This document shows, one piece after another, positions 12,701-57,497 of a stretch of DNA of 64,000 nt. The DNA comes from a virus, in IMG/VR virus record IMGVR_UViG_3300034102_003517, positions 1 through 64,000 of that record. One strand, written 5' to 3'. The notes beneath the pieces are model-generated. The model searched no databases, was not told the origin of the DNA, and saw nothing but the letters and a program-made list of their open reading frames with translations. The translations under genes and the position numbers were made by a program. Each line of letters begins with the position of its first letter. The stretch's first letter is position 1.

Positions 12701-13174
12701 ATGAAAAAAATTGTTAGACTAACTGAATCCGATTTAGTTAATATCGTAAAAAGAGTAATCGAGGAACAAACTACACCAGCTGTTATTGATGCTGGATATA
12801 GTCGTGATATGCAAGATTACGCTATTGTACTTTCTCAACCAACTATCGCTGGTGGTTCAGGTTACAAGGGAACAGTGACTGCTCAGGTTAAATTCAACGG
12901 AGTTAGAATCAAAGATAATGGATCTCCTGTAACAAAAGGAAACATTGTTCTTTATGCCGCATGTGGTCCTAGCGCCAATCCAGGGGCATTAAGTCCAAGA
13001 AGTTCTGCGGATGTTTTCGAAGGTGGTAGTACTTATGTTTTTGGAAGAGGTAGTGTAGTAGATAAAATGGTTAGAAATTTTTGTCAATCTAAAGGTCAAC
13101 CTAGTTCACCAACTGCAGGAAATGCTGTAAATTACATTGGAGATGCTAAAAAAGCATTATCAATGTCAAAATAA
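12701..13174 (+). CDS. Putative capsid-targeted protein with N-terminal IVRLTESDL peptide (copy 1)
   Basis: 157 residues. Residues 1-23 share the pattern M-x-K-IVRLTESDL-x-x-IV-x-RVI-x-E-Q with the gene at 14362, while the rest of the two proteins is unrelated. The shared peptide is amphipathic and ends in I20-E21-E22, matching the [I/L]-x-E cleavage rule of T4-type prohead proteases. The body is rich in Gly/Ser and beta strands. The gene has its own upstream AT-rich element and a terminator. Inferred, not shown: an internal virion protein delivered with DNA. Enzymatic function not recognised. Confidence 0.65.
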   Translation: MKKIVRLTESDLVNIVKRVIEEQTTPAVIDAGYSRDMQDYAIVLSQPTIAGGSGYKGTVTAQVKFNGVRIKDNGSPVTKGNIVLYAACGPSANPGALSPRSSADVFEGGSTYVFGRGSVVDKMVRNFCQSKGQPSSPTAGNAVNYIGDAKKALSMSK

Positions 13175-13746: not shown

Positions 13747-13803
13747 CACTTTTAAAAATATTTTAAAAAAAATATCCCACCATAATTAAATGATGGGATT
13801 AAT

Positions 13804-14221
13804 TGGTGGACCTAGAGGGCTCCGACTCCCTCGTCCGGCTCGTCTTGTCTAAGAGACAACTACATGTTTAGGATAAGGTTTTTCATACCTTCCAAAATAT
13901 TTGGTTCCTATTTTAACATCGTTACCAAAAACTGTGTCGAGTTCACTTTTGTTACGGTAGACCTCTGAACGAGACCGTTTGTTTCTTTTTGGGTAGAAAC
14001 CACACCTTAAGGATTTCTGTTGCTAGGTTATGTATCCACCGACCCCCCGTTTCCGTACTTAAATTAAGCTACAGTAACTTCTTGAGTTGAGATAAGTCCC
14101 AAAGTCTCAAGGTTGTTTAGCACATTGCCAGTTGTTGTTCGAATCAGTTTTTAACGAGATTAATTCAGTCCCGACATGCTTCTTTTATTCAACCAACGCC
14201 CGTCAAATCCAATATAGGCCC
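13804..14221 (-). ncRNA. ssrA: Transfer-messenger RNA (tmRNA)
   Basis: 418 bases. The 5' end GGGCCTA pairs with TAGGTCC before the encoded CCA, giving a 7-bp acceptor stem with the G3-U70 wobble read by alanyl-tRNA synthetase. Just inside is the conserved TGGATTTGACGGG block, then GCATGTCGGGA, and near the 3' end TAAACATGTAG, all as in bacterial tmRNA. From a resume codon GGC at tmRNA position 93 an open frame of 21 codons begins GNVLNNLETL and ends STQEVTVA before TAA. The tag is longer than the usual ten or so residues and does not end in LAA. The T-arm is atypical: an 8-base loop AGTCGGAG instead of TTCRANY. tmRNA with SmpB rescues stalled ribosomes. A host-type promoter lies 30-odd bases upstream. 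The call is secure; tag frame is inferred. Confidence 0.95.
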
Positions 14222-14257: not shown

Positions 14258-14288
14258 CAAATATAAATATTATATCCTAAAAAATCAA
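14258..14288 (-). promoter_or_regulatory. Bacteroidota-type promoter of the tmRNA
   Basis: Minus strand: TTG (14286-14288), 20-base spacer, TATATTTG (14258-14265). Initiation a few bases downstream would leave a leader of about 30 bases for RNase P to remove from the tmRNA 5' end at 14221. Confidence 0.8.
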
Positions 14289-14315
14289 ATTAATTAATTT
14301 TTTTACTTAAAACAA

Positions 14316-14361: not shown

Positions 14362-14715
14362 ATGAGTAAAATTGTAAGATTAACTGAAAGTGACTTGAAA
14401 AGAATCGTATCCAGAGTAATCAACGAACAAGAAGTGATGGATTGGGCGCAATATTCTGTAGCTGCGGAAAAAAATAGAAAAGGAATGCGTATTGCTAATA
14501 CTGGAAACAATGGTGCCGACGGAGTCGGGTTTGATTTAAAACAGTGGAGTCAAGATTTAGGATGGATAAATGATAGAAGTGGAAAAGATTATACTTATTC
14601 ATGTAAAACTGGTCAGATAGTGGATGAAAGTAATCAACCTATTTCTTCCATGGTGGTTTCTCAACTAACTTTAAATCACCCTAATTGGAAGGGGACCCTT
14701 AAATCCGATTGTTAA
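14362..14715 (+). CDS. Putative capsid-targeted protein with N-terminal IVRLTESDL peptide (copy 2)
   Basis: 117 residues. Residues 1-23 are nearly identical to the gene at 12701 (KIVRLTESDL, then RVINEQ), with I20-N21-E22 as a prohead-protease-like cleavage site. The remainder (MDWAQYSVAAEKNRKG ... GVGFDLKQWSQDLGW ... LTLNHPNWKGTLKSDC) shows no resemblance to copy 1 and is not recognised. The head-to-head position with the tmRNA promoter and a strong terminator mark it as an independent unit. Predicted virion-internal or processed protein; function unknown. Confidence 0.65.
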   Translation: MSKIVRLTESDLKRIVSRVINEQEVMDWAQYSVAAEKNRKGMRIANTGNNGADGVGFDLKQWSQDLGWINDRSGKDYTYSCKTGQIVDESNQPISSMVVSQLTLNHPNWKGTLKSDC

Positions 14716-15292: not shown

Positions 15293-16441
15293 ATGCGAAA
15301 AATATTAGATATTTTTGAACAAGACGAAGATGAGATAGAATTAACCGACTACGAAAAAATTCTTGCTTTAAATAAAAGAAAGATTGACCCATATGAAACT
15401 GATTTTGATGGGTGTGATGGTACTGATTATTCAGACTATTATGAAGTAGGTTATGATGGTATAACTTTCACTTTCCATGATGGATTAGAAGAATACCTAA
15501 GATTTTTTTTCAAAGAAACTTATGGTGATGAAGGTTCAGATGCTTGGTATGAAGCGGGATATCTTGATTCTATGCGTAGAGGTCAATGGGAATGGGATAC
15601 TTGGGATAGAGCAAGTGAAGATTGGAATGATGGGTATATAATTGAATCAATAAACGGTGATCCATTAAAACTTTTATATGAGATATTAAAAAAATATCAA
15701 CCACACTTATTAAATTCTTTTGAGGTTATTGATAATCACGTTAAGTGGAAAGATGGTAAAGAAACGGATAAAATATGTGATTTTATTGAATCTGTAAGTA
15801 GCAGAACAAAGGATGATTTAATAGAGGCTTATGCATATGCAAATGATAGAGCAACGGATGCGGAAGTGCCAAGATATATTGATGAAATATATTGTAATTC
15901 TTTATCTGTTATTGGTATTGAAAATCAATCAAAAAATTGTTATTGGAAATATTTTTTAAGTTGGGGTGACGCCATTATGTTATTTGTAAGATACGGAACT
16001 CCCGAAGATTGTTTGCTGGATATAATGTTTAAAGCAATAGAAAAAGAAGTTACAAACCACGCTTCAGAATATTATGAAATTCAATACGAAGCTTGGAACA
16101 GAGATGTATTTTACGAAGAATTTAATAAAAGAAGTATTAGAGATTTAGAAAGTTTAATGGAAGAGTTAGACGATATGGTTCAAGAGGGTGGAGAAGAAAA
16201 AATGAAAAAATATTTTCAAATTTTAAACACACTAAATGAAAAAATAGGATTTAATCGTAGTAAAAAAATTCCAGGAGGATATGAAATTAGAATATTTGAT
16301 GTTGATAGTGACACTTTAATGGTTAATTATGGTTTACGTAAAGGAAACACATGGGGAGAACCATTTAAAAAAGGGTCCGCCCCATTACGTCGTATCTTGG
16401 ATATGTTGGAAACTCCACCGATTGTTCCTTATATTGATTAA
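15293..16441 (+). CDS. Large acidic protein of unknown function
   Basis: 382 residues, strongly acidic and rich in Asp, Tyr and Trp (FDGCDGTDYSDYYEVGYDG, WEWDTWDRASEDWNDGY). The short N-terminus MRKILDIFEQ contains I7-F8-E9, which would fit the same [I/L]-x-E rule as the 12701 and 14362 proteins. The C-terminal third has GGYEIRIFDVDSDTLMVNYG. The 3' end overlaps the stop of the convergent peptidase gene by four bases. No family recognised; possible DNA mimic because of its charge, which is conjecture. Confidence 0.6.
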   Translation: MRKILDIFEQDEDEIELTDYEKILALNKRKIDPYETDFDGCDGTDYSDYYEVGYDGITFTFHDGLEEYLRFFFKETYGDEGSDAWYEAGYLDSMRRGQWEWDTWDRASEDWNDGYIIESINGDPLKLLYEILKKYQPHLLNSFEVIDNHVKWKDGKETDKICDFIESVSSRTKDDLIEAYAYANDRATDAEVPRYIDEIYCNSLSVIGIENQSKNCYWKYFLSWGDAIMLFVRYGTPEDCLLDIMFKAIEKEVTNHASEYYEIQYEAWNRDVFYEEFNKRSIRDLESLMEELDDMVQEGGEEKMKKYFQILNTLNEKIGFNRSKKIPGGYEIRIFDVDSDTLMVNYGLRKGNTWGEPFKKGSAPLRRILDMLETPPIVPYID

Positions 16442-17490
16442 TACTTTTTAATCAATCTTTCTTTAATAATTTCATAAAGACTTACTAAATCCTCATCGGG
16501 GATAAATAAAAATCCATCGTCATAAGCGTCACTTAATGTGATACCATCTTTTTCTTCATATGCGTCTATACTCCCTAAACGATGAAAAGTTTCTTCAGGG
16601 TAATCAAAAACTTCTTCATCTAAATCTTCCACAAGTGAATTCATTATTAATTGAGGAGTATATTTGATAGGAGCATATTCGTATGTGTATTTTTTAAGTC
16701 CCAATACTGCAACCATCTTCTTTCCTGCTTCAATCGCATTTTTTACATCGTCTAAGGATACAAACTCTTGAACTGAGTGCATATTGTAATAACCACAAGA
16801 CATGTTAATGCAAGAAACATTGATTTTCTTTTTTAGTTGTGAAATGTCGGTGTAAGGGTGAGATTGAACTAACATTTCATTACCAAAAGATTCCGTAATA
16901 ACTTCTAATGTTTTTTCAAAGAACTCACTCTCCCTTTCAAACAAACGAACTCCCGAGCAAATCTCGGTAATTAAGTGATTACCAGGTGCGTCATATTGAG
17001 TGATATAACCAACATTCTGTAAAAAGTTTTCATCACATTTTGATGAACCGTGACATCCTGTTTCTTCTGAAACAAAAAAACCAATTTTTACTTTGTCTAA
17101 TTGTTTTAGTAACTCTAAACAAATAAAAATACCACACTTGTCATCACCACCAATACCTGTTGGGTTACCGTTAGTGTCATAAGCCTTTAATACATCAACT
17201 GGTGTGTTGTCAAAGGATTTACCAAAAGTGTAAGGTCGAGCAAGTTTTTCTTCTTTAACTACTATTTTTTCAATCTTACTGTGTACTGTATCTGTGTGAG
17301 CAATAAACATAGGGTAAAATTCACCTTCCTCTAACACACCTTTTGTCGCGTAGATGTTCATCATTACATCACGATAGAAAGTAACCCCTTCCATATCCCC
17401 CAACTCGTCACAAATAAACTCTACCATATCTTCTTCTTGATATGTCTTGCTTGGGACTGAAAGGAGCTCTTTAAATTTTTCTATGTTCAT
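16438..17490 (-). CDS. M20/M42-type zinc peptidase (peptidase T-like)
   Basis: 350 residues from ATG 17490 (MNIEKFKELLSVPS). This start was chosen because a host-type promoter at 17504-17533 overlaps the longer in-frame start at 17514. Metal and catalytic motifs are visible in order: FIAHTDTV, GGDDKCGIF, FFVSEETGCHG, and near the end NMHSVQEFVSL. This fits di-zinc aminopeptidases that finish the breakdown of short peptides in the cytosol. It lies directly downstream of the ClpC-like gene, on the same strand but with its own promoter. A role in recycling peptides from Clp degradation is inferred from the pairing. Confidence 0.8.
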   Translation of the reverse strand: MNIEKFKELLSVPSKTYQEEDMVEFICDELGDMEGVTFYRDVMMNIYATKGVLEEGEFYPMFIAHTDTVHSKIEKIVVKEEKLARPYTFGKSFDNTPVDVLKAYDTNGNPTGIGGDDKCGIFICLELLKQLDKVKIGFFVSEETGCHGSSKCDENFLQNVGYITQYDAPGNHLITEICSGVRLFERESEFFEKTLEVITESFGNEMLVQSHPYTDISQLKKKINVSCINMSCGYYNMHSVQEFVSLDDVKNAIEAGKKMVAVLGLKKYTYEYAPIKYTPQLIMNSLVEDLDEEVFDYPEETFHRLGSIDAYEEKDGITLSDAYDDGFLFIPDEDLVSLYEIIKERLIKKY

Positions 17491-17503
17491 TGCTGTTTTT
17501 TTA

Positions 17504-17533
17504 CAAATGTACAAAAGTTTTTAACATTTGCAA
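17504..17533 (-). promoter_or_regulatory. Bacteroidota-type promoter of the peptidase
   Basis: Minus strand TTG (17531-17533), 19-base spacer, TACATTTG (17504-17511). It leaves a leader of only about ten bases to ATG 17490. Confidence 0.75.
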
Positions 17534-17535
17534 AA

Positions 17536-19572
17536 TTATTTTTTTCTTTTAATTGGTTTTTTTATTTTAACATCAGTTTTCTTTTCCTTCTCGTTATAAG
17601 TAAGAACAAACTTTGATCCTTTTTCTGGGTTATCTGTAAGGATTTTTTCAGTGATTGCATCATCAATCCATTTCTGTACGGTTCTTTTAAGTATTCTAGC
17701 CCCAAAACGAGTATCCATTCCGACTTCTATTAGATGTTTTTTTAGTGTCTCATCGACATCTACAGAAAACTCTAACTTAGAAATTCTTTCGTAGAATTTA
17801 TTAAGTTCTAAATCAACAATTTTTAACAAATCCTCTTTATTAAGGTCTTTGAAATAAACTATATCATCAAATCTATTGATAAACTCAGGCGGGAATTTTT
17901 TGAATAGCTCTTTTTCCAAAAGTGTTTTGATCTCATCGTCTTTTCTTTCAGTTTTTGCCGTTGTTGAAAAACCGACACCCGTCCCAAAATCTTGTACAAC
18001 CTTAGTTCCCACATTAGAAGTCATTAGAATAATACAATTTTTAAAATTTATTTTTCTCCCATGACCGTCTGTTAACATACCCTCATCCAACATCTGTAAA
18101 AAAACATTGAATATATCGGAATGTGCCTTTTCTATTTCATCTAATAGAATTACAGAGTATGGCTTGTTTTTGATTTTATTCAAAAATGGTGAGCCCTCTT
18201 CAAACCCCACATAACCTGGTGATGTTCCCGTCAATTTGGATGTTGAAATTTTATCTGAAAACTCACTCATGTCTAAACGGATTAAAGCGTCTTCACTGTT
18301 AAACATATGTTTTGCCAATTGTTTTGCGAGTTCTGTTTTCCCGACTCCCGAATTACCAATTAACAGACCACTGAAAATAGGTTTTTTCGGATCGTTTAAA
18401 CCAACTTTATTTCTCTGAATTGCCCTTGCTATTTTACTTACAGCATCATCCTGACCAATAACTTTTGTGTTCAAATTTTCTTTTAAAGAAATAAGTTGTT
18501 GTGTTTCATCTGTAGATATTTTATTCACAGGAATTTTTGTCATTAAAGAAACTACATCATAAACGACATCTTCAGTCACTTCTCTTTTAAACATGTCACG
18601 ATTCTTTTCGAATTTTTGTTTCTCATTTTCTAATTCGGCAAGAACTTTTCTTTCTTTGTCTCGTAAATTAGCCGCCTCCTCATACTTTTGTTTGTTGATG
18701 ACATCTAACTTTTCTTCTTTGATTTTCAAAGCTTCTTTTTTCAAGTCCTCAATAATTTCAGGAAGTTTTACTTCCACTTGAGATCTTGCCCCAACCTCAT
18801 CAATAATATCAAATGCCTTATCTGGAAATTCACGATCAGTAATATATCTATCGGCTAACTCCACACAAAGTTTCATAATATCATCACTATAAATTACTTT
18901 GTGGTAATTTTCATAACTTTCTTTGGATTGTTGAAGAATTAGTAATGTTTCTTCTTTTGTTGATGCGTCAACAATAACTTTTTGGAATCTTCTTTCTAAT
19001 GCCCCATCCTTCTCAATATTTTTTCTGTATTCGTCTAAAGTTGTCGCCCCAATACATTGAAGTTCCCCTCTTGAAAGTGCGGGTTTAAATATGTTTGACG
19101 CATCCATAGAACCTGATGAATTACCAGCACCAATCATAGTATGTATTTCATCAATAAAAATTATAATATCGGGATTTCCATATAATTCTTCCATTATAAC
19201 CTTCATCCTCTCTTCAAACTGACCTCTATATTTTGTCCCTGCCACAACTGATGTCATATCTAACGATACTATTCTTTTGTTTGCTAAATTTTGAGGACAA
19301 TCACCTTCAAAAATCTTTTTTGCAAGTCCCTCAACAATTGCAGTTTTACCACAACCCGGTTCCCCTAAAATAATTGGATTGTTTTTCTTTCTCCTTGATA
19401 AAATTTGAGCAATCCTATTGATCTCGTTTTCTCTCCCTATCACAGGGTCCAACTTCCCTTCTTCTGCCGCCTTAATTAGATCTCTTGAGAAATTATCTAA
19501 TACGGGGGTTTTTGAGGAACTATCTTTAGGTTTGTTTTTTGGTTTTTCGTTTTCGTCTACGGATTCTATCAT
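17536..19572 (-). CDS. clpC: ClpC-like AAA+ unfoldase lacking the N-terminal domain
   Basis: 678 residues. Two AAA+ modules: Walker A GEPGCGKT (70-77) and Walker B IIIFIDE in the first, GNSGVGKT (406-413) and SVILLDE in the second. A coiled region between them carries a UVR motif ([12 protein letters not shown], about 296-307), diagnostic of ClpC/ClpA-type rather than ClpB. The ClpP-docking tripeptide VGF is present at 533-535 in DFGTGVGFS. Bacterial ClpC is usually above 800 residues; the missing part is the N-terminal repeat domain, which binds adaptors. Predicted to unfold substrates into ClpP, which is not seen here and would come from the host. A TTG-N20-TAATTTTG promoter precedes it. 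ClpB is ruled out by the short middle region and the VGF loop. Confidence 0.9.
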
Positions 19573-44511: not shown

Positions 44512-45492
44512 TTATTTGTTTTTATAGTAGTTTAACCAATACTCAATCATTTCATCTAACATAGATTCAAAAGTGTATTTTGGTTTCCAACCTAAATCAT
44601 TTGTTAATTTTGAAGAGTCCCCCTTAAGATTTTCAAGTTCTTCGGGCCTAAAGTGTTTCTCGTCAATAACAACATAATCTTTATATTCTAAACCTAAAGT
44701 ACTAAAGGTATACTCACATAAATCTTTTACCGTGTGTGAAACTCCTGTCGCACACACATAATCATTAGGGTTGTCCGATTGTAACATTAACCACATAGCT
44801 TCAACATAATCTTTAGCATGACCCCAATCTCTGGATGCTTCTAAATTACCTATGTGTAATTTTTCTTGTAGACCTAAACTGATTCTAACTGCCGCCTTAA
44901 CCACTTTATTTGTTACAAAATTTGTACCTCTTCTTGGTGACTCATGGTTAAATAAAATACCATTCCATATTTTCATGTTATATGCGTTTCTATAATTTCT
45001 ACAAATATTATATGAGAATACTTTGGCACAACCATAAGGTGAAACTGGATTCATCGGTGTTGTTTCTCTTTGAAGTCCATCCTTATCTATTGAATTACCG
45101 AACATCTCGGATGAAGATGCTTGATAAATTTTAATTTCAGGATTTACAAGTTTAACCGCTTCTAAAATATTCAGAGTACCTAACCCCGTAACATTTGCAG
45201 TGTATATCGGTTGATCGAAAGAAATTCTAACATGCGATTGTGCTGCTAAATTATAAACCTCATCGGGTTTAATTTCACTAATAACTCTTATTAGTGATGA
45301 TAAATCCGTTAAGTCTGCGTAATGCAATATTAATTTGTCAAATACATTATCCAAACGAGAAGTTTGATTTTCAGAAACAGAGTTTCTTTTTAATGTGCCA
45401 TGCACTTCATATCCTTTTTCTAATAATAACTCAGATAAGTAAGATCCGTCCTGACCATTTATACCTGTTATTAATGCAATCTTTTTACTCAT
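44512..45492 (-). CDS. gmd: GDP-mannose 4,6-dehydratase
   Basis: 326 residues, normal for Gmd. NADP-binding ALITGINGQDGSYLSELLLE, the Gmd-specific GTLKRNS and HYADLTD, catalytic Thr/Tyr-Lys region in YQASSSEMFG and PVSPYGCAKVF, then GILFNHESPRRGTNFVTNK and DWGHAKDYVEAMW. Converts GDP-D-mannose to GDP-4-keto-6-deoxymannose, entry to fucose, rhamnose, perosamine and colitose. Here its neighbours favour colitose. Overlaps the ColD-like gene by 8 bases. Confidence 0.95.
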   Translation of the reverse strand: MSKKIALITGINGQDGSYLSELLLEKGYEVHGTLKRNSVSENQTSRLDNVFDKLILHYADLTDLSSLIRVISEIKPDEVYNLAAQSHVRISFDQPIYTANVTGLGTLNILEAVKLVNPEIKIYQASSSEMFGNSIDKDGLQRETTPMNPVSPYGCAKVFSYNICRNYRNAYNMKIWNGILFNHESPRRGTNFVTNKVVKAAVRISLGLQEKLHIGNLEASRDWGHAKDYVEAMWLMLQSDNPNDYVCATGVSHTVKDLCEYTFSTLGLEYKDYVVIDEKHFRPEELENLKGDSSKLTNDLGWKPKYTFESMLDEMIEYWLNYYKNK

Positions 45493-46639
45493 TATTTACT
45501 ATGTTTGAAATTAAATTTATTTGTTCTGATGTTAGATCCTGATGGTTTGGTATATAAAACCCATACTCATTGATCAATTGACAATTAGGTAAATTAACCT
45601 CACCATAATTTTTAATCCACATAGGTTTTTTTGACATATCACCAGCAATTAAAGGCCTAACTTCAATATTATCCTTAATAAGTTTTTCGATGATTTTTAA
45701 TCTATTTTTATTTACAATGGGATATGCAAAATTAGAAATAAAGTCTGTTGGTCTATCTGTTATATTCAGTTGGTTGACATTTATTGAAGATTTATACAAT
45801 TGAAAATTTTTGTTCCTTTTTTCAGTATAGTCATCTAATTTATCTATTGCTCTTAACCCAATAAACGCTTGTAGATCCGTTGATCTTAGATTAAATCCTG
45901 GTAAATAAAATGTATATAGTGAATCAAATTCGCTAATTTTATTTTCGTTTCGTAATTTATTTTGGATTCTTTTTGGTAGGTCTCTATCCCAACCATGACT
46001 TCTCATCATCAATAATGAATAATAAAAATCTTCGTCGTCCGTATTAATAAACCCACCCTCTATTGTACTTAAATGATGTCCAAAATACATCGAAAAAAAT
46101 GATGCAAAGCCAAAAGACCCGAGGTATTTTTCATTATACTTTGATCCCATGCTCTCGCATACATCCTCCAGTAGGATCACATTGTATTTCTCACATAGGT
46201 CAAGAACTTTTTTCATATCAGGAACTAAACCTAATGGTGAGACTAAAATGAATGTAGATGGGTTATGTTGAATAAACAATTTTTCCAAGTGATCTAAATC
46301 ACAAGAAAGATCCTCAAGATTACAATCACATAAAATTGGTTCCATACCTAATATCATAGGTGAACTAACATCGGTTGCCCAACTTAACCCTGGTACAATT
46401 ACTTTATTATTTTTTAATTTGTTGGTGTGTTGTAAAGCCGCTAACGCTAAAAGAATTGCGGAGGAACCTGAATTAAGATAAACCGAATATTTGGTTCCTA
46501 TTTTTTTCGCCCATTTAGATTCTAATTCCCAAGTTAGATCTCCTTTTGTTAGTCTCGGAATCTCGTCTTGTCCTAACCACTCAATTAAAGAATTTATATC
46601 TTCTTTATTGATAGTGTCACTTACTAATTTTATACTCAT
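45485..46639 (-). CDS. colD: ColD-type GDP-4-keto-6-deoxymannose 3-dehydratase
   Basis: 384 residues of the DegT/DnrJ fold: YLNSGSSAILLAL, VPGLSWATDVSSP, LLEDVCESMGSKYN. At the position of the PLP-lysine the sequence is FFSMYFGHHLSTIEGGF, with His188-His189. Replacement of Lys by His is the mark of ColD and RfbH-type dehydratases, which remove the C3 hydroxyl instead of transaminating. With gmd on one side and a GDP-fucose-synthase-like gene on the other, the product is predicted to be the 3,6-dideoxy intermediate of colitose. An aminotransferase such as perosamine synthase is unlikely without Lys. Confidence 0.85.
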   Translation of the reverse strand: MSIKLVSDTINKEDINSLIEWLGQDEIPRLTKGDLTWELESKWAKKIGTKYSVYLNSGSSAILLALAALQHTNKLKNNKVIVPGLSWATDVSSPMILGMEPILCDCNLEDLSCDLDHLEKLFIQHNPSTFILVSPLGLVPDMKKVLDLCEKYNVILLEDVCESMGSKYNEKYLGSFGFASFFSMYFGHHLSTIEGGFINTDDEDFYYSLLMMRSHGWDRDLPKRIQNKLRNENKISEFDSLYTFYLPGFNLRSTDLQAFIGLRAIDKLDDYTEKRNKNFQLYKSSINVNQLNITDRPTDFISNFAYPIVNKNRLKIIEKLIKDNIEVRPLIAGDMSKKPMWIKNYGEVNLPNCQLINEYGFYIPNHQDLTSEQINLISNIVNNE

Positions 46640-46645
46640 AATGTC

Positions 46646-47572
46646 TTATTTTCTTAATTTATCGTAGTTTTGAATAAACCAATCTATTGTTGTTTTAATT
46701 CCATCCGATAATGTCGTAAATTCAAAATTCGAAGGTGCGTCCGAAATTGCAGGTTTCCTCAATTGACCCGTCGGTTTTGTGTTATCAAACAGTATATCAT
46801 CTTTCGAAATATTGAAGTTTTCACAAATTAAATTAGATATTTCCAAAACTGAGTGCTCATTCGGATTTACCGCCATAAAGGGATAGTCACTTTTCCAATT
46901 ATCTAATGACCATAAAATTAATTTTGCTAAATCATCAGAATGAATTACTTGTCTTAATTGTGAACCATCGCCCCATATTATCATTTTTTCTTTATTTTTT
47001 TTTGATTCATACGCTCTATGGATCATAGCTGGAATCATATGTCCACCAAATAAGTTGAAGTTATCGTGTATTCCGTATACATTCGTAGGTACAACTGAAA
47101 CCCAATTAGATTTAAGAACCTTTTTAATAGTGTTTGTTTCGTATCCTGCTAATCTTTTAGCGTAAGCATAACCTTCGTTTGATGGATGAGGTTTACCCTT
47201 GTCAACATCCTGAGGTTTCATTGGAAACTCTATGTTTTTCTCAGGAAATATACAAGTCGAAAGTAAATTCACAAAGTTGGGAACTTCATTTCTAAATGAA
47301 GTCTCCATCACATTATTGTTTATTACGAAATTATCTATAAAAAATCCTTTATTATCGGATAGGTTTGCTTGAACACCTCCGACTTTTGCGGCACAATGAA
47401 TTATTGTATCCACATTACTATGTTTTACATGATAAGAAAAATAATCATGAGTTTTTTTATAGTCTAAAAGATCCACCTCTTCTTTTGTATGGTACACATG
47501 ATCGTCACCTAGTTGTTTTCTTAATGCCGAACCAACTAACCCATTAGACCCTGTAATTAATATCCTACCCAT
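46646..47572 (-). CDS. GDP-L-fucose synthase/ColC-like epimerase-reductase
   Basis: 308 residues from ATG 47572 (MGRILITGSNGLVGSAL). A TTG 30 bases upstream extends into the neighbour and is less likely. Catalytic set as in GDP-fucose synthase: Ser-x-Cys in NLLSTCIFPE (Ser105, Cys107), Y-A-Y-A-K (135-139), His in GGHMIPAMIHRA. Epimerises C5 and reduces C4 of the GDP-keto sugar with NADPH. In this context ColC activity, giving GDP-L-colitose, is likely; GDP-fucose from the Gmd product is the alternative. Confidence 0.85.
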   Translation of the reverse strand: MGRILITGSNGLVGSALRKQLGDDHVYHTKEEVDLLDYKKTHDYFSYHVKHSNVDTIIHCAAKVGGVQANLSDNKGFFIDNFVINNNVMETSFRNEVPNFVNLLSTCIFPEKNIEFPMKPQDVDKGKPHPSNEGYAYAKRLAGYETNTIKKVLKSNWVSVVPTNVYGIHDNFNLFGGHMIPAMIHRAYESKKNKEKMIIWGDGSQLRQVIHSDDLAKLILWSLDNWKSDYPFMAVNPNEHSVLEISNLICENFNISKDDILFDNTKPTGQLRKPAISDAPSNFEFTTLSDGIKTTIDWFIQNYDKLRK

Positions 47573-47591
47573 TTTTTGTTTTTTATTAAGT

Positions 47592-48356
47592 TTATATATC
47601 AATACCGTTAAAATATGTATTGAAGTTATTTTCCCATATTCTTGGTATGGGGGTATTATTTAATTTCATTAATTTAGTATGTGATAAAACCATGTTCTTG
47701 TTTAGAAATCCCGCAGAAATACTAAAAGTACTTGACCCCACTATTAATATATCAGAAGTCACCATCTTTATAAAGTCACCCATAAATTTTCCACCCGAAT
47801 CAGAAGTATAATACTCAATTCTTGGGTCACTCAATTGGATTCCCGACTCACCCCAGCTGAAGATTTTTATTTTGCAATCAGATTCTTTTTCCAAAATAAA
47901 TTCTATCAACTTTTGATATGTTTCACTTTCTATCCATCTATAAGGTTTGTCTTCCTCAAAAATATCTTCACCACGCCTGATGTGTATCGATATAGTACGG
48001 GTTTGGTCCCCTCCAAAGTTAAAGGTATGTGAGGATTTAATTTTTTCTAAAAAGTTTTCTGTAAAATAATTTTCAGAACCTTCATTATAAATTAAATCAT
48101 GACAGAATGGTTTAACCGTACAATCTAAATCCTCAGTTTTAGAAATATCAATATTATTAATAATAGAAAATACAAACTCATTAGATCTAATTAAATCTTC
48201 GTTAAGAAAATTTTTTGAACTAAGTAGTTTTATGTTTTGAATAGGGGAGTGTTTATACGGTATTTTGTGTTTGTCGCAGTATGCTAAACCTGATATTATA
48301 CTAAATAGTTGCGATCCGAACCCGTCTTCACCTCTACTAATTGTCAAACATTTCAT
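47592..48356 (-). CDS. GT11-like fucosyl/colitosyl transferase
   Basis: 254 residues. N-terminal EDGFGSQLFSIISGLAYC is a variant of the GGLGNQ(L/M)FQ motif, and TISIHIRRGEDIF is the GDP-fucose-binding HxRRG motif. C-terminal VTSDILIVGSSTFSISAGFL fits the GT11 SSTFSxW region without the Trp. Likely uses GDP-fucose or GDP-colitose made by the adjacent genes. Donor inferred. The 81-base gap downstream of the next gene contains only AT-rich sequence. Confidence 0.75.
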   Translation of the reverse strand: MKCLTISRGEDGFGSQLFSIISGLAYCDKHKIPYKHSPIQNIKLLSSKNFLNEDLIRSNEFVFSIINNIDISKTEDLDCTVKPFCHDLIYNEGSENYFTENFLEKIKSSHTFNFGGDQTRTISIHIRRGEDIFEEDKPYRWIESETYQKLIEFILEKESDCKIKIFSWGESGIQLSDPRIEYYTSDSGGKFMGDFIKMVTSDILIVGSSTFSISAGFLNKNMVLSHTKLMKLNNTPIPRIWENNFNTYFNGIDI

Positions 48357-48437
48357 ATTTTACTGTATATTTTTTTATTTCAAAATAACATATAAACCCC
48401 ATAAAATAAACACAAGTATTATCTATTTGACTTAGAG

Positions 48438-49268
48438 TTATTGAATTATGTTTACTAACCTTGCGAACGAACTTTTAGGGTTGAAATGTTTAAAGTTACT
48501 TTTTGACAGTAATACCATATCTATGTATGCGTCAATAGTAGCGTCTAAAGGTGTTACAACATTACAAGAATAGTTTGAATTAATATCAGATTTGTAAACA
48601 TTATTTTTTTGGGGTCTCACTTTGATCATTGGGTATTTTACAATTATATTTTTTTCCCAATCGGGGTCGTCGGAACAAAAAAATATATTATTACCATTTC
48701 TTAGTTCTTCATCTATTATAGGAAAGTACGATTCAAGTTTTTCATTTATGAAATCTGTACCTCTTGCGTGGATTCCTACTGTGTCTTTATTTATTTCTAA
48801 ATAACTTTGTAAATCATTTATTTTATCAATTATTTCTTTTTTAGGTTTTAACTTAAAAAAATTTTCTTTGACGGTTTCTTTATCGACATGACCAATAAGA
48901 TCGTTAAAAAAAACAATAGTGTTTTGGTGACTGAGATTATTAATATTAAATAAATGTACGGGTTTAGGAAAACTTCTTTTACTCATATTCAAAAGAGAGT
49001 CTATGGAGTTAATTTTGAATTCATATTCTGACGCAATTAATCCACCCTCACTACCATGAAAATTTTCAACATCAACTAAATTATCTAATTCGGTAAAACT
49101 AAGTGACCCGATATTTTTATTTTCAAAAATATCTTGAAAATCACACATTAATCTCATGGTTTTTGGCCAAACCAACTTAATATTATAATCAAAAATGTTT
49201 TTTATGTTTAAAAACGGGCTTAACCTATTACCCAAACCTCCCGAACAATAAAATATCAGATTACTCAT
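48438..49268 (-). CDS. Fucosyltransferase-superfamily protein
   Basis: 276 residues. FYCSGGLGNRLSPFLNIKNI at the N-terminus and TVGIHARGTDFINE in the middle match the GDP-fucose-dependent transferase superfamily (GT23/GT11-like), with the His-x-Arg-Gly contact to GDP-fucose. C-terminal DATIDAYIDMVLLSKS is typical. Probably transfers a GDP-deoxyhexose. Acceptor unknown. Confidence 0.7.
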   Translation of the reverse strand: MSNLIFYCSGGLGNRLSPFLNIKNIFDYNIKLVWPKTMRLMCDFQDIFENKNIGSLSFTELDNLVDVENFHGSEGGLIASEYEFKINSIDSLLNMSKRSFPKPVHLFNINNLSHQNTIVFFNDLIGHVDKETVKENFFKLKPKKEIIDKINDLQSYLEINKDTVGIHARGTDFINEKLESYFPIIDEELRNGNNIFFCSDDPDWEKNIIVKYPMIKVRPQKNNVYKSDINSNYSCNVVTPLDATIDAYIDMVLLSKSNFKHFNPKSSFARLVNIIQ

Positions 49269-49277
49269 TATAAAAAA

Positions 49278-49922
49278 CTATCTAGGGTCGTACCCCCATT
49301 TTGATATAAAATATCTTGTGTTATGTCCCACAATACTGTCTGATCTATCCCCATTGGCGTACATCTCAGTACCATGATTAACCATAGTACCATTTGACCC
49401 ATCAAAAGATACATAGTTCTCCTTATTGAGTCTATTACCTAAATCCTGATCTTCATGACCATAGTGACCATCAAAATTATTATCAAAGAGACCGATTTCG
49501 TCAATAACCTTTTTTCTAATACCTAAATTTGCGGTACTAAACCATCCGGATGCTAAATCACCATTTGGAAATCTAATTTTTCCCTTACAAACATCAGATG
49601 TATTCAATACATCAACATGAGATTGTACAAAATTACTATCCACAGGAATACAATCGTCGTCTAATAAAATTATGAACGGAGAAACACATAAAGAAACCGA
49701 TTCATTGAATCTGGCGACTCTATGGTACCCATCATCTTTGTTCCAAATATATTTTGTAATGATCGGATGGTCGTTGGGGTTTATAATTGTTTTATTTCCG
49801 TCATCGTTAACTATTAGATTAAAATCCGTGTTGGTTTGTTTGGATAATATATCTAAGGTCTCTATTAACCTATCATTTCTATTGTAGGTTGTAATGCAAA
49901 TATCGACAGTTTTAATTTTCAT
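49278..49922 (-). CDS. Family 2 glycosyltransferase
   Basis: 214 residues. DICITTYNRNDRLIETLDIL, DXD motif in IILLDDDCIPV, and late GHYGHEDQDLGNRL, the galactosyltransferase-type catalytic E-D motif. Its last codons adjoin a GT11-superfamily gene; its start touches the asparagine-synthase-like gene stop. Confidence 0.85.
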   Translation of the reverse strand: MKIKTVDICITTYNRNDRLIETLDILSKQTNTDFNLIVNDDGNKTIINPNDHPIITKYIWNKDDGYHRVARFNESVSLCVSPFIILLDDDCIPVDSNFVQSHVDVLNTSDVCKGKIRFPNGDLASGWFSTANLGIRKKVIDEIGLFDNNFDGHYGHEDQDLGNRLNKENYVSFDGSNGTMVNHGTEMYANGDRSDSIVGHNTRYFISKWGYDPR

Positions 49923-51247
49923 TAGAATCCTATTTTTTCATTTTCCGTAAATGGAAAGTTATATTTTTTTAAATAATAATAAAGAACTGACTTATAATGT
50001 GAATTCTTTAATTCAGGTTTCAACCAAAGAAATTCTTGCACAACCTCTAAGTCTAAAAAGGGGTACCTTGATTCAATTCCATATGAACCAGCAACATACT
50101 CTTCTTTCGCCAAATAAGATTCCATCGAACTATTAAAAAAACTTGGCCAAGGAAAAACGCTTTTTAAATCTTCAGGAAAAAGTCCACCAAAATTACTGTG
50201 GTTATATTTCTTAATACCACCAAAACCATAATCTGAAAAAATTTCATCAGCACCTTGTCCAGACAATAGAATTTTTTTTCCATCTTTAATTGCGTTACTA
50301 CAAACATGTGATAAATGTTTTGCACCATTATCATCAATTAAAGATAACCAATATTCGTTGTAATCACTTGAGTTTGAATAGGTAACAAATTTAAATGTTT
50401 CTGTATTATTTTTTATATAATTGTATGCAACATTGATCTCATCAGTGTTTTTAGTTAGAGATTGTTGCTCATTATTATTTAGTAATGAAAATCTCTGATT
50501 AAGAATATTTGAGTTTTCTGTGCCGATTACGGTATATGATTTGAATTTTACATTTTGGTTTAGTAATTCACAACAAATAGCCCCACTATCATAACCACCA
50601 CTAAGACCTATAAATATTTTTTCTCTAATTCCGTTAGTTCTTTTTTTAATTGATTTCTCAAACGCACTAACCCAATCCTCAAAAGTATCTTTGTTTTGGT
50701 TCGACACATCAAAATTATGAACTAATCTTTTTTCCAATGGAGTCCTTGTTTTTAGGTCGACAATCAAAGTTGTGTTTGGATCCATCTTTAAGATGTTTGT
50801 GTATCCTAATTTTTTTAAAGGGTCACTATATGATGATGTTGCGATACCGTCAGTTAAAGAATAAAAAATTGGTTTAGTTTTAAATGTATCTGTTGATATT
50901 ATTACTATGTTTTTATTGAAATCTACTAAAGTTATAGCAAATTCTCCATCTAGTTTTTTTATGAAGTTGTATCCGTCTTTAATGTATAGAGGTATTAGAC
51001 ATTCCCCATCTGAATTGTAATCACCAAATTCTTTATAGTTATATATTTCACCATTATAAAGACAAATTATGTTGTCTTGTACAAATGGCTGTGTTTTAAA
51101 TTCTCCGGTTATACTCAATAAGTTGTGTAGAAATGAATATCCGTTTTTAACAAAAACATTTGTATTGTCAGGACCTCTAAACTTATTAAAGAAATTAACA
51201 TAATCTACATCTGAGATTTCTTTGTTTGTGAAAATAAAACTACACAT
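49922..51247 (-). CDS. Asparagine synthase-like amidotransferase
   Basis: 441 residues. Cys2 is the class II glutamine amidotransferase nucleophile; LYNGEIYNYKEFGD (63-76) is the glutamine pocket. The synthetase half has the PP-loop LSGGYDSGAICC (215-226) and GQGADEIFSDYGFGG, SRYPFLDLEVVQEF. Slightly short relative to AsnB (about 550). In glycan clusters such enzymes often amidate uronic acids or aminoacylate sugars, so free asparagine formation is not assured. Confidence 0.85.
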   Translation of the reverse strand: MCSFIFTNKEISDVDYVNFFNKFRGPDNTNVFVKNGYSFLHNLLSITGEFKTQPFVQDNIICLYNGEIYNYKEFGDYNSDGECLIPLYIKDGYNFIKKLDGEFAITLVDFNKNIVIISTDTFKTKPIFYSLTDGIATSSYSDPLKKLGYTNILKMDPNTTLIVDLKTRTPLEKRLVHNFDVSNQNKDTFEDWVSAFEKSIKKRTNGIREKIFIGLSGGYDSGAICCELLNQNVKFKSYTVIGTENSNILNQRFSLLNNNEQQSLTKNTDEINVAYNYIKNNTETFKFVTYSNSSDYNEYWLSLIDDNGAKHLSHVCSNAIKDGKKILLSGQGADEIFSDYGFGGIKKYNHSNFGGLFPEDLKSVFPWPSFFNSSMESYLAKEEYVAGSYGIESRYPFLDLEVVQEFLWLKPELKNSHYKSVLYYYLKKYNFPFTENEKIGF

Positions 51248-51249
51248 AT

Positions 51250-51921
51250 TTATTGACCTTTGATTCTTACTTGAGGCATTATCGGATTTTTTCCTAACCC
51301 ACCATTAGAAAACCCCGGTAAAATTTTAATGTCAACACCTGTTTTCCAAATAACAAATGGCATACTTATCTGATCTCTTGATGAATATCTAGAAATTTGA
51401 TCCCACCATCTCAAATTTAATTTTTGTACATTATGAGTATTTTTTCTAATACTTACAGGTAATTCAAACAATCCGTAATTTTCGGGGAACCCTTGAGATC
51501 TATAGTAATTTAGTTGATTGTCGACTAAATTAATATGATCATATTTAAGTCTTTTTATTTCTTCTCCTTCTTGATAAGCACAATTTCTAGATGTGTGGAC
51601 CCAAAGACCTATTTCTGAATCTCCCATGTAATTTTTTATAACTTCAGAGGGATCCATGATAAGGTCGTGAGTGGTATCCATCCAAAACCAATAATCATAG
51701 TTAGGAAAAAAAAGATTAGGCAGTACCTTATATATTTTAGCATTTCTCCTCGACTTATATTCTTCATCTAAAGAAAAATCAATGTGAGGAATTTGTTTCC
51801 ATATCTTGCAGTCGTGTTGCCTGTCAACAAATGCAAAATAATCAACCCCATCAAACTCGATTTCAGGATCCCTCAATGGGTTAGGTAATCCTATATGTGA
51901 TGTTATAACTGCTATTTTCAT
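51250..51921 (-). CDS. DUF616/TOD1-like glycosyltransferase
   Basis: 223 residues. ITSHIGLPNPLRDPEIEFDG, VDYFAFVDR, NAKIYKVLPNLFFPNYDYWF and WMDTTHDLIMD agree with the DUF616 (TOD1/MUCI70) group, a GT-A-like family. Four-base overlap with the epimerase gene. Confidence 0.7.
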   Translation of the reverse strand: MKIAVITSHIGLPNPLRDPEIEFDGVDYFAFVDRQHDCKIWKQIPHIDFSLDEEYKSRRNAKIYKVLPNLFFPNYDYWFWMDTTHDLIMDPSEVIKNYMGDSEIGLWVHTSRNCAYQEGEEIKRLKYDHINLVDNQLNYYRSQGFPENYGLFELPVSIRKNTHNVQKLNLRWWDQISRYSSRDQISMPFVIWKTGVDIKILPGFSNGGLGKNPIMPQVRIKGQ

Positions 51922-52817
51922 AAAGTTTTTTTATATTTTTTCACCCAAGATATTACATTACCTTTAGGAATCCACCCCAACTTGTTTTTAATTTTACTGT
52001 TGTCTGCCAAAGTGATATAAGGTTCTAACCTTTGTTCATTGTAAACTTTTTCTGATTCAAATAAATCTGCAATTTCGTTAATACTATAATTGTCACCGTT
52101 ACCGACATTAAATACATCACCGTTGAAAGATTCTTCATATACTCCGGCTAAATAATTTGCTTCGACAACATCCCCAACATATGTAAAGTCTCTTTTTTGC
52201 TCACCATCGTTGGTTATTGTTAAATGTTTAGATTGTTTATATTGATTAGCAAAGATACCAATCACAGTACAATAAGCCCCTTCATCTAACATACCTTCAC
52301 CATAAACATTGAAATATCTAAGAGATACCGTATCTAAATTGTAGACTTCGGAAAAAAGTTTACAGTATTGCTCTCCAATAAATTTTTGTAATCCATAAGG
52401 ACTCATTGGGTTGGGGTTTGCAGTTTCAGGTGTTGGGAATATGTTAGTATCACCATAGACACTACTTGATGCTGAATAAATAACTCGTTTTACTTTTGAC
52501 CTATGTGACGCAACTAAAATTCTCAATGTTGAATCTACATTCGCCCTATTAAAAGAAATTGGGTCTACAATCGAAGGTTGTACCCTTGCTTTGGCTGCAG
52601 TGTGGTACACCAAATCAACACCTTCCAAATAATTGACTAAAGTTTCCATATCAATTTCTGAAACATCGGATTTTATAAATTCACAGTTATTTGGGATATT
52701 TTCTAATTTACCCGTGCTCAAGTCATCAATTACCAATACTTGATGACCTAAACTTAAAAACTTTTTTACGATATGGTGACCAATAAATCCTGCACCACCT
52801 ACTACACATACTTTCAT
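51918..52817 (-). CDS. NAD-dependent sugar-nucleotide epimerase/dehydratase
   Basis: 299 residues, extended SDR. GGAGFIGHHIVKKFL binds NAD; ASSSVYGDTNIFPT and MSPYGLQKFIGEQYC contain Ser and the YxxxK pair; RYFNVYGEGM and RDFTYVGDVVEANY are UDP-sugar epimerase marks. Likely a UDP-hexose 4-epimerase (UDP-GlcNAc or UDP-Glc). Provides a second donor to the cluster. Confidence 0.85.
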   Translation of the reverse strand: MKVCVVGGAGFIGHHIVKKFLSLGHQVLVIDDLSTGKLENIPNNCEFIKSDVSEIDMETLVNYLEGVDLVYHTAAKARVQPSIVDPISFNRANVDSTLRILVASHRSKVKRVIYSASSSVYGDTNIFPTPETANPNPMSPYGLQKFIGEQYCKLFSEVYNLDTVSLRYFNVYGEGMLDEGAYCTVIGIFANQYKQSKHLTITNDGEQKRDFTYVGDVVEANYLAGVYEESFNGDVFNVGNGDNYSINEIADLFESEKVYNEQRLEPYITLADNSKIKNKLGWIPKGNVISWVKKYKKTL

Positions 52818-52829
52818 TTTAAAAAATTT

Positions 52830-53612
52830 TTATATTACAATCCATTTTGTGGGATAAATGTCCTTGGTTTGTAAATGTTTATTTATTGGTCCAAACCAAT
52901 CGGATGGACATATAACTTTTTTATCTTCATTTTTATTTAACCACGCTCCCCACCAACTGAATGTTGAATTTGCAATTATGTTATGATAACACATTGACAT
53001 TAAATATAGATTTTCAAAATCAGTGTCCCCTTCTATGAAATGGGTATTTTTAAGGAAACTAAAATTTTCTTTACACCATTCTATATCATCTGAAAATATC
53101 AAATACTCACAACCCTCACCAATAATATTAGTTGCTTTTTCATAATAGTCAATTGGTTGTACCGTGTGGGAATCGCTCAACCTCACATAATCCCCCCTCC
53201 TTATGTGAATTGAGCAAGTTTTTTTTTGGAGTAAGTGGAAATATTTTGTAGTTAACTTATTTTCAATTTCATTGGTAGCTGAGAACAAATTTAAAATCTC
53301 ATTCCTATAAACATTAAAATATTTTTCAGATTGGAAATATCCGTATAACATGATGTTGTTATGTGCATTAGGTATTTCATTATAATGAAAACGGGGTTCA
53401 TGGTATAACTGAATATCTGAGGGTATTGACCCAAATTCTATTCTGCTAAAAATATTATTAAAATAATTGTTTATTGGTTTATGTGATCCGTGAGATACAA
53501 CTTTTGGACAGATAAACTTTTTAGAATCCCTTAAAGATGTTGCATATGCCGCTGCGATTTGAAATAGACAGTTACCTAATCCCCCCATTAAATTTGTACT
53601 AATAATATTCAT
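52830..53612 (-). CDS. GT11 alpha-1,2-fucosyltransferase-type enzyme
   Basis: 260 residues. Textbook GT11 motifs: LMGGLGNCLFQIAAAYA, CSIHIRRGDYVRL, CEYLIFSDDIEWCKENF, and IIANSTFSWWGAWLN. Uses GDP-fucose in the family; E. coli O55-type colitosyltransferases belong here too, so GDP-colitose is an alternative. No GDP-fucose pathway separate from the gmd set is seen. Confidence 0.92.
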   Translation of the reverse strand: MNIISTNLMGGLGNCLFQIAAAYATSLRDSKKFICPKVVSHGSHKPINNYFNNIFSRIEFGSIPSDIQLYHEPRFHYNEIPNAHNNIMLYGYFQSEKYFNVYRNEILNLFSATNEIENKLTTKYFHLLQKKTCSIHIRRGDYVRLSDSHTVQPIDYYEKATNIIGEGCEYLIFSDDIEWCKENFSFLKNTHFIEGDTDFENLYLMSMCYHNIIANSTFSWWGAWLNKNEDKKVICPSDWFGPINKHLQTKDIYPTKWIVI

Positions 53613-54307
53613 TATATGATATTATATTTTTTTATGACATAGTTTATCTCATCATTAATGTCTAACCTATAGTTGGAACTAATTTGATTTTCATGTAATC
53701 TATTCGTAATAAGAGTTTCGGGTATTATTGCGGGTAATCCGTATTTAGTGTAAAAATTATAATAAATCTCACAATCCATGAGCATCACTAGATTATCATC
53801 AAAAAGAATGTTAGAATCTTTTCTAAAAGACAAAACGGACGGGGAACTTATTGTGTTTATCCCTCTATATATTGAGTCATTCCAACTTGGGACCATGTAA
53901 TTCCAATACTTACTGTTATTAGAATCTGTGTGATTACACCCATTGACAACCCACATTACATTATCTTCGAATTTAGAAGAGATCATTTCTAATGATTTAT
54001 TGTTAAATAAAAAATCGTCTTGGAACATCACCTTAATAATTTTCCCTTTTGAATGTTTGATTGAGTTGTTGGTGTTGGATGGGCTATTACCAATTTTTTC
54101 TTGGTTAGTGACATAAACTATATTAATATCAGAAGAGTACTTTTTAACCACATCCTGTATTAGGTTAGTTGTACTGTGGTCCGAAATCACAACTTCAAAG
54201 TCTTGGAGTGTTTGAGTTTTAATTGTGTCGAGCAATTTAGACAAATAAACCCCCCCAAAACCATTTTGCTCCCATGTGGGTATACAAATTGAAAATAAAG
54301 GACTCAT
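53612..54307 (-). CDS. Family 2 glycosyltransferase
   Basis: 231 residues. FSICIPTWEQNGFGGVYLSK, VVISDHSTTN, and acidic VMFQDDFLFNNKS in the DXD position. Overlaps both neighbours by one to four bases. Donor unknown. Confidence 0.85.
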   Translation of the reverse strand: MSPLFSICIPTWEQNGFGGVYLSKLLDTIKTQTLQDFEVVISDHSTTNLIQDVVKKYSSDINIVYVTNQEKIGNSPSNTNNSIKHSKGKIIKVMFQDDFLFNNKSLEMISSKFEDNVMWVVNGCNHTDSNNSKYWNYMVPSWNDSIYRGINTISSPSVLSFRKDSNILFDDNLVMLMDCEIYYNFYTKYGLPAIIPETLITNRLHENQISSNYRLDINDEINYVIKKYNII

Positions 54308-55017
54308 AACAATTTATATGGTTTCATATTTCTAATTTTATCGGCAATTTCGTTTACCAACTTAAGATCGACTTTATGATCATTTATGGGATTTTGTTCG
54401 TTATATACATAATTTACATCAGTCATGAATCTATATCTATTTTCTCCGGACATTTCAAGCATCGGGTACATAAAAGATAAATCACCTGTAACTTTCCAAA
54501 ATTCACCATTCTCATCTTTCAGATCAGATTGATCAATTTTTCTCCATAGGAAAGCTCTCCAAGTTCTGATATGAGATGCAGTAAATCTTACATTCCTAAG
54601 ATTATCAAAATTTGTTTGTTTTGAAGAAAAACCGGGTTGACCTGTAGAGTATTTAAAACTTCCATTAGCTATCCACACATTTGGGTTTGAGTAAACATTA
54701 TATATTCTTTCCAAGGCTTTTGAATCAGGTAACCAATCATCTCCGTCTACTTCTACAATTATTTCGTTGTCTTGAATGTTTGGGTTGTTTCTAATTACTT
54801 GGTCGTAGTTTCCTGGCTGATACATCTTTTTTTCATTTTTAATTAAAAGGAATCTATCGTCACCTTTAATCATGTTTTCAACTTTAGAGACACTGTTGTC
54901 TGTAGAGATGTCATCTGTTATATAACATTTAAAATCTGTATGTGTTTGACCCATAATCGAACCAATACACCTTTCAATATAATTTTCAGCATTAAATAAA
55001 GTAGTTACAATTACCAT
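54304..55017 (-). CDS. Family 2 glycosyltransferase
   Basis: 237 residues. VIVTTLFNAENYIERCIGSI, YITDDISTDNSV and IIVEVDGDDWLPDSKAL give a clear GT-A core. Four bases overlap the next gene. Donor unknown. Confidence 0.88.
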   Translation of the reverse strand: MVIVTTLFNAENYIERCIGSIMGQTHTDFKCYITDDISTDNSVSKVENMIKGDDRFLLIKNEKKMYQPGNYDQVIRNNPNIQDNEIIVEVDGDDWLPDSKALERIYNVYSNPNVWIANGSFKYSTGQPGFSSKQTNFDNLRNVRFTASHIRTWRAFLWRKIDQSDLKDENGEFWKVTGDLSFMYPMLEMSGENRYRFMTDVNYVYNEQNPINDHKVDLKLVNEIADKIRNMKPYKLL

Positions 55018-55021
55018 AAGT

Positions 55022-57496: not shown

Positions 57497-57497
57497 T

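What the first reader, a model, noticed from the sequence alone, without database searches (positions are those of the whole stretch)
13804..14221. Phage-encoded tmRNA with a long, non-LAA tag
The acceptor stem with G3-U70, conserved 5' and 3' blocks and encoded CCA identify a tmRNA. The predicted 21-codon tag ends STQEVTVA, not in the LAA degron that ClpXP/ClpAP read. A phage tag that avoids or redirects host proteolysis would alter the fate of proteins from stalled ribosomes. The T-loop AGTCGGAG is also unlike normal tmRNA, so SmpB or modification-enzyme contacts may differ.
Basis: partly seen in the sequence, partly recalled or inferred. Interest (0 to 1): 0.85.

Follow-up and report, generated by a model that had tools for sequence, protein, structure and literature searches.

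The report
Phage ribosome-rescue RNA with private tag
A large virus of Bacteroidota-type bacteria carries its own ribosome-rescue RNA whose long protein tag differs from every bacterial tag read here, and beside it lies the virus's own protein-unfolding enzyme, with which the tag changes in step, which suggests that the virus labels and destroys failed proteins by its own code.

Summary
RF00023 scores 71.5 bits at exactly 14221-13804 (minus); acceptor stem with G3-U70, encoded CCA, Bacteroidota-type promoter and terminator are present. The 21-codon tag is GNVLNNLETLGLISTQEVTVA (14129-14064). It is no artefact: 168 IMG/VR loci carry 31 versions, all 21-22 residues, nearly all ending EVTVA or QVTVA. 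None of the 9 GTDB hits to the tag-end DNA is a tmRNA, and 30 Bacteroidota tmRNA tags are 9-10 residues ending [LM]AA. All 35 long records with the tag encode the unfoldase, same strand, nearby. Tag class follows the unfoldase clade (53/55 versus 0/88), while the tmRNA's own D- and T-loop types mix across clades. Best explanation: a phage-owned tagging-and-degradation circuit using host SmpB and usually host ClpP. Recognition of the tag by the phage ClpC is inferred, not shown. 'Redirects host proteolysis' is partly supported; 'avoids' is not. The AGTCGGAG T-loop is real (44 tmRNAs, four covarying stems) but independent of the tag. New variant of phage-encoded tmRNA.

The parts
13804..14221 (-). 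phage tmRNA (ssrA) gene, one-piece, 418 nt
   Evidence: RF00023 71.5 bits, E 7.6e-26; 14 related tmRNAs share a fold with compensatory changes in 19 of 47 pairs
14064..14129 (-). tag reading frame GNVLNNLETLGLISTQEVTVA plus stop TAA
   Evidence: frame conserved in 168 loci, 31 peptides; per-codon constraint
14215..14221 (-). acceptor stem 5' strand GGGCCTA (G3-U70 pair, AlaRS identity)
   Evidence: sequence; one search shows pairs 5-442 and 6-441 with compensatory change and GU at pair 3 in 13 of 14
13804..13814 (-). acceptor stem 3' strand TAGGTCC and encoded ACCA
   Evidence: sequence
13815..13832 (-). T-arm: stem GAGGG/CCCTC with 8-nt loop AGTCGGAG instead of TTCRANY
   Evidence: 44 tmRNAs have this loop with four different stems
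14258..14289 (-). Bacteroidota-type promoter-like site TTTG-N20-TATATTTG
   Evidence: TAnnTTTG in 33 of 35 distinct upstream regions of related tmRNAs, 3.2 expected
13774..13799 (-). intrinsic terminator directly after the CCA
17536..19572 (-). ClpC-type AAA+ unfoldase without N domain; pore loops KYRG and GYVG, VGF ClpP-docking loop
   Evidence: ClpC 6em9 E 1.6e-199 aligned from residue 149 of ClpC; Pfam AAA_2, AAA_lid_9, ClpB_D2-small; loop conservation
16438..17514 (-). M20/PepT-like metallopeptidase, 22 nt downstream of the ClpC gene; motifs HTD, GGDDK, EETG, YDAP, NMHS
   Evidence: Pfam M20 and M42 just above cut-off; PepT-like NCBIfam matches well below cut-off; PHROG peptidase; motif count

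Best explanation
The gene is a functional phage tmRNA that works in ordinary trans-translation with host SmpB, host AlaRS and host ribosomes, but appends a phage-specific 21-residue tag. The neighbouring phage ClpC-type unfoldase reads the tag (hydrophobic, ending xVxVA) and feeds tagged chains into ClpP, host-made in most of these phages and phage-encoded in a few. The M20/PepT-like peptidase would break the resulting peptides into amino acids. The phage so rescues ribosomes stalled on broken mRNAs during infection and disposes of the stubs through its own recognition code. Shown: the tmRNA, the conserved tag, the conserved gene cluster, ClpP-docking and pore loops in the unfoldase, and co-segregation of tag class with unfoldase clade. 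Inferred: transcription and charging, tag recognition by this ClpC, delivery to ClpP, the peptidase's role, timing and benefit.
For: tmRNA intact with compensatory changes in 19 of 47 consensus pairs. Tag conserved across unlike tmRNA bodies: 31 peptides in 168 loci, G1, G11, L12, V18, V20 and A21 fixed while codons mostly vary, positions 4, 7, 10 and 13 only hydrophobic. PF17871 unfoldase in 35 of 35 long records with the tag; 94 of 94 scored loci have tmRNA on the unfoldase's strand, 1.9-5.7 kb downstream, with the peptidase on the same strand or flipped. [VIML]GF loop in 91 of 93 unfoldases, KYRG in 93 of 93. Tag class against unfoldase clade 53/55 versus 0/88, while D-loop and T-loop types occur in both clades; tag class needs 5 changes on the unfoldase tree, 9 and 16 on trees of the tmRNA's own 5' and 3' parts. 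NL tags go with [SA]PGYVG in the D2 pore loop, KM and TFA tags with PPGYVG, one exception. Records with short canonical tags lack the unfoldase: W07 ANPEFAMAA and a 210-kb phage. Relatives by capsid protein without tmRNA lack it too. Two other huge phages with ClpC have long tags. Bacteroidota ssrA tags differ.
Against: No biochemical evidence. Tag and unfoldase are physically linked, so part of the co-segregation is shared descent; the peptidase tree fits nearly as well (6 changes with 79 rows). One record (L113/L232) pairs a clade A unfoldase with a KM tag. Only 3 of 35 records encode ClpP and 1 of 38 SmpB, so the circuit needs host parts. The canonical-tag controls are few and mostly prophage edges or fragments. 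Many loci are near-identical contigs.
Confidence: 0.6

Rival explanations
1. The phage tmRNA works normally and the tag is simply read by host ClpXP or host ClpCP; the phage ClpC serves another purpose, such as general proteolysis or virion assembly.
For: Engineered E. coli ssrA variants ending LVA, AAV and SVA are used as degrons (PMC9382460), so a tag ending in VA might still be read. Unfoldase and tmRNA lie near the packaging and capsid genes and may just be neighbours.
Against: It does not explain why the tag is 21-22 residues, conserved along its length and tracks the unfoldase rather than its own tmRNA body; Bacteroidota hosts use 9-10-residue [LM]AA tags.
Confidence: 0.2
2. The tag is a protective or decoy tag: ribosomes are rescued but tagged phage proteins escape host ClpXP because the LAA end is missing.
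For: No LAA end in any of the 31 tags.
Against: A tag that only has to avoid recognition would not need a fixed GL, EVxVA end and hydrophobic positions; the constant presence of a ClpP-docking unfoldase argues for degradation.
Confidence: 0.1
3. Tag, unfoldase and peptidase are markers of one phage lineage that travel together by descent, with no functional coupling; the tag evolves slowly because its ends overlap RNA helices.
For: Linkage within 6 kb; the last codons GTA GCY TAR have almost no synonymous freedom apart from GCT/GCC, and their downstream sequence looks able to pair with them.
Against: Tag amino acids are constrained inside the tag too (G11, L12 with CTT/TTA/CTA codons); the tmRNA flanks on both sides changed type across lineages without the tag.
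Confidence: 0.07
4. The tag is an active peptide in its own right (for example an inhibitor or a membrane or partner-binding sequence), appended to many chains.
For: Regular hydrophobic spacing V3 L4 L7 L10 L12 I13.
Against: No parallel found in the papers searched; the unfoldase linkage is then unexplained.
Confidence: 0.03

Closest known systems
Bacterial tmRNA (RF00023) of Bacteroidota, tags such as GEYNYALAA
   Same: One-piece architecture, G3-U70 acceptor, resume context AACTGGC
   Different: Host tags are 9-10 residues ending [LM]AA; phage tag is 21 residues ending EVTVA; T-loop differs in the window
Other phage-encoded tmRNAs (mycobacteriophages, phage G, Melnitz, huge phages; PMC4131195, PMC9004378, PMC7162821)
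   Same: Phage carries its own ssrA; in about 2% of phage genomes (PMC9004378)
   Different: In the passages of those papers read here no clade-specific long tag and no link with a phage unfoldase is described
Mollicutes ssrA tag (Mesoplasma florum, ends NYAFA) read by Lon (PMC9382460)
   Same: Longer, non-LAA tag matched to a dedicated protease
   Different: Cellular, Lon-based, arises where ClpXP is lost; here phage-borne, ClpC-type unfoldase, different end motif
ClpC / ClpA AAA+ unfoldases
   Same: Two AAA+ rings, ClpC-like middle region, pore loops, ClpP-docking GF loop
   Different: No N domain; phage-encoded beside a tmRNA

Membership tests
tmRNA (RF00023) | matches the covariance model over its full length | tested here: met
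   71.5 bits, gathering 47, model 1-374
tmRNA (RF00023) | alanine-type acceptor with G3-U70 and CCA | tested here: met
   sequence; GU at that pair in 13 of 14 relatives
tmRNA (RF00023) | internal reading frame conserved as a peptide, ending at a stop | tested here: met
   31 peptides in 168 loci
tmRNA (RF00023) | standard T-loop TTCRANY | tested here: not met
   AGTCGGAG in the window and 43 others; most remaining relatives with a readable T-arm have TTCGANN. Not a feature that decides Rfam membership
tmRNA (RF00023) | charged with alanine and tags stalled chains | not testable with these tools
   needs RNA and protein work
canonical ssrA degron (ClpXP type) | C-terminal [LM]AA | tested here: not met
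   all 31 tags end in VA
Mollicutes Lon-type ssrA tag | C-terminal NYAFA | tested here: not met
   definition from PMC9382460
ClpC unfoldase | two AAA+ modules closest to ClpC | tested here: met
   best PDB matches are ClpC; NCBIfam ClpA/ClpB equivalog cut-offs are not reached
ClpC unfoldase | N-terminal Clp_N domain | tested here: not met
   protein starts at the position of ClpC residue 149; no Clp_N among the Pfam families shown
ClpP partner unfoldase | [LIV]GF-type docking loop | tested here: met
   [VIML]GF in 91 of 93
M20 peptidase | metal-ligand motifs of the family | tested here: inconclusive
   Pfam M20 25.5 bits against cut-off 24.6; HTD and EETG found in 79 of 79 relatives, GxDDK in 77; no PDB relative by sequence

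The most novel reading that the evidence does not exclude
Large T4-like phages of Bacteroidota own a complete recognition code for trans-translation: a private ssrA tag and a cognate phage ClpC unfoldase, co-evolving as a lock-and-key pair and orthogonal to the host's LAA/ClpX code, so that nonstop products are degraded under phage control.
Probability: 0.5. Interest if true: 0.88.

Novelty: new variant of a known kind. Interest (0 to 1): 0.74.

Why it matters
Why phages carry tmRNA is open; published suggestions are maintenance of the hijacked machinery, recycling of host proteins (PMC9004378) and sensing of host state (PMC7162821). A tag that changes with a neighbouring phage unfoldase gives a direct, testable answer: phages can install their own protein-disposal code. 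It would also be a natural orthogonal degron/unfoldase pair (compare M. florum tag and Lon in PMC9382460). ARAGORN misses nearly all of these tmRNAs, so surveys that used it would have overlooked them.

Tried and rejected
Chance or assembly artefact: rejected, 168 loci with 31 peptides. Host tmRNA captured at an attachment site: rejected, the tmRNA is about 14 kb inside a 166-kb virus record, tag DNA absent as tmRNA from GTDB genomes. blastn to cultured phages: no match. T-loop oddity as the mechanism: rejected as independent of tag. pN/pS of the whole tag was only mildly informative (0.59 in frame, 0.70 and 1.98 in the other frames). A genome-wide count of the Bacteroidota promoter motif in the window was at chance; only the count upstream of tmRNAs was telling. 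A script for acceptor stems chose wrong ends and was discarded. Canonical-tag control scan returned mostly enterobacterial prophage edges, so only the large records were used. The tag frames of W04 and W06 rest on single sequences and are tentative.

Full report
1. Observation. RF00023 matches the window's minus strand at 14221-13804 over the full model with 71.5 bits; it is the only Rfam match above gathering score in 64 kb. ARAGORN reports nothing. The acceptor GGGCCTA/TAGGTCC pairs fully with G3-U70, CCA is encoded, an intrinsic terminator follows at once, and a TTTG-N20-TATATTTG site precedes it. The tag reads GNVLNNLETLGLISTQEVTVA, 21 codons, 14129-14067. The window belongs to a 166,385-base IMG/VR virus record with T4-type terminase and Gp23 capsid genes.

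2. A conserved family. An 18-mer from the 5' block found 39 IMG/VR stretches, all but two of them tmRNAs of this kind. Because that scan is biased toward EVTVA, a second scan started from the neighbouring unfoldase and recovered the same tags and variants: EQVTVA, EVVVA, ESVSVA, ELVSVA, ELVAVA, EVAVA. In all, 168 loci hold 31 tag peptides of 21-22 residues. G1, G11, L12, V18, V20 and A21 are fixed while their codons mostly vary; positions 4, 7, 10 and 13 take only hydrophobic residues. The last codons have little synonymous freedom; they appear able to pair with the sequence after the stop, so an RNA constraint is added there (not tested pair by pair).

3. Not a host tag. The tag DNA pattern has nine hits in 257 Gb of GTDB genomes, none a tmRNA by Rfam; a longer tag pattern has none. 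Other codings of the same peptide were not excluded. Thirty Bacteroidota tmRNAs, 29 read by ARAGORN and L269 by hand, carry 9-10-residue tags ending LAA or MAA. Bacteroidota as host group is supported by the TAnnTTTG box in 33 of 35 distinct regions upstream of these tmRNAs (3.2 expected; with the -33 TTTG 14 against 0.23) and by a Flavobacterium phage among the nearest cultured relatives; a Microcystis phage scores similarly, so host assignment is likely, not certain.

4. T-loop. AGTCGGAG occurs in 44 tmRNAs with four stems, GAGGG/CCCTC, GTGAG/CTCAC, CGGGG/CCCCG and GTGGG/CCCAC, so the 8-nt loop is real. Most of the others have TTCGANN; 57 could not be read by the script. The loop type changes 16 times on the unfoldase tree and occurs with both tag classes. 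It is a separate curiosity.

5. The neighbourhood. 17536-19572 encodes a ClpC-type AAA+ protein (PDB ClpC, E 1.6e-199, from ClpC residue 149 on), hence without the N domain. KYRG and GYVG pore loops and the ClpP-docking loop QDFGxG[VIM]GF are conserved ([VIML]GF in 91 of 93). Directly downstream, 16438-17514 is an M20/PepT-like peptidase with conserved metal-ligand-like motifs; it has no PDB match by sequence, so its assignment is weaker. All 35 long records with the tag have the unfoldase; in 94 of 94 scored loci the tmRNA lies on the unfoldase's strand 1.9-5.7 kb downstream, the peptidase being on the same strand or flipped. Unfoldase loci with long flanks but no tag hit by the first expression mostly hold tmRNAs too.

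6. Controls. Capsid relatives immuto, Mel-JY01 and RM378 have neither tmRNA nor unfoldase. Huge phage LR756511 has tag ANPEFAMAA and no unfoldase; LR756508 and LR756504 have both an unfoldase and long tags (GVNNADYESAGFTAEDFAQMDGESLYHGSERKPAAV and DNVNSFEQSILNELFAPVEMAVAA, frames tentative); LR745206 has an unfoldase but no full tmRNA match. None of 15 records with canonical NYALAA tags has the unfoldase, but most are prophage edges or fragments; the 210-kb record is the useful one.

7. Co-segregation. Unfoldases at least 78% identical to the window's (clade A) go with 'NL' tags in 53 of 55 loci; those below 70% (clade B) never do (0 of 88). D-loop type GACGGGCG occurs 9 times in A and 22 in B, GACAG 32 and 41; T-loop AGTCGGAG 19 and 19. 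Coarse tag class needs 5 changes on the unfoldase tree, 6 on the peptidase tree (fewer rows), 9 and 16 on trees of the tmRNA's own 5' and 3' parts. In the D2 pore loop NL tags go with [SA]PGYVG, KM and TFA tags with PPGYVG, with one exception, L113. So the tag moves with the unfoldase lineage although the RNA around it has been exchanged. Linkage and shared descent remain a partial explanation, since the peptidase fits nearly as well.

8. Mechanism. Host SmpB is presumably used, since SmpB is in 1 of 38 records; LR756504 has SmpB about 4 kb from its ClpC. ClpP is in 3 of 35 records, with ASMGS, His and Asp motifs visible. Most likely, therefore, phage tmRNA rescues ribosomes with host SmpB, adds the private tag, the phage ClpC unfolds the product into host (or phage) ClpP, and the peptidase recycles peptides. 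The recognition step is inferred. A precedent for a long non-LAA tag matched to another protease is the Mollicutes NYAFA tag with Lon (PMC9382460).

9. Literature. Nine full-text searches found phage tmRNAs (PMC4131195, PMC9004378, PMC7162821) but, in the passages read, no phage-specific tag clade or tag/unfoldase pairing. Subscription journals and preprints are not covered, so novelty is provisional.

Noticed in passing
L245:16349-16764 (-): A GOLLD RNA (RF02032, 314 bits) lies about 1.2 kb from the phage tmRNA in a 126-kb record; both are large phage structured RNAs.
   Followed up: no
L228-L231, L235, L242: The ClpC match spans about 2.5 kb instead of 2.0 kb and the main aligned block starts at residue 74: a possible intron or intein near the first Walker motif.
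   Followed up: no
L223:16307-16519: A 213-nt tmRNA with an internal deletion that removes the end of the tag and the pseudoknots but keeps both ends.
   Followed up: partly
L266 (LR756508 414804-414915) and L267 (LR756511 2250-2386): Huge phages with a full tmRNA also carry short RNAs of about 112-137 nt that look like the tRNA-like domain alone, reminiscent of the DS6A fragment in PMC4131195.
   Followed up: no
L162, L163, L164: Phage-encoded ClpP homologues with Ser-His-Asp motifs in three tag-bearing phages, two of them with the GETFA tag class.
   Followed up: partly
window 44512-58000 (-): Long block of nucleotide-sugar epimerase-like, glycosyltransferase-like and asparagine-synthetase-like genes in a T4-like phage.
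   Followed up: no
window 12701-12760, 14362-14420: Two otherwise different genes begin with nearly the same leader (MKKIVRLTESDLVNIVKRVIEEQ and MSKIVRLTESDLKRIVSRVINEQ), which looks like a shared targeting or processing N terminus.
   Followed up: no
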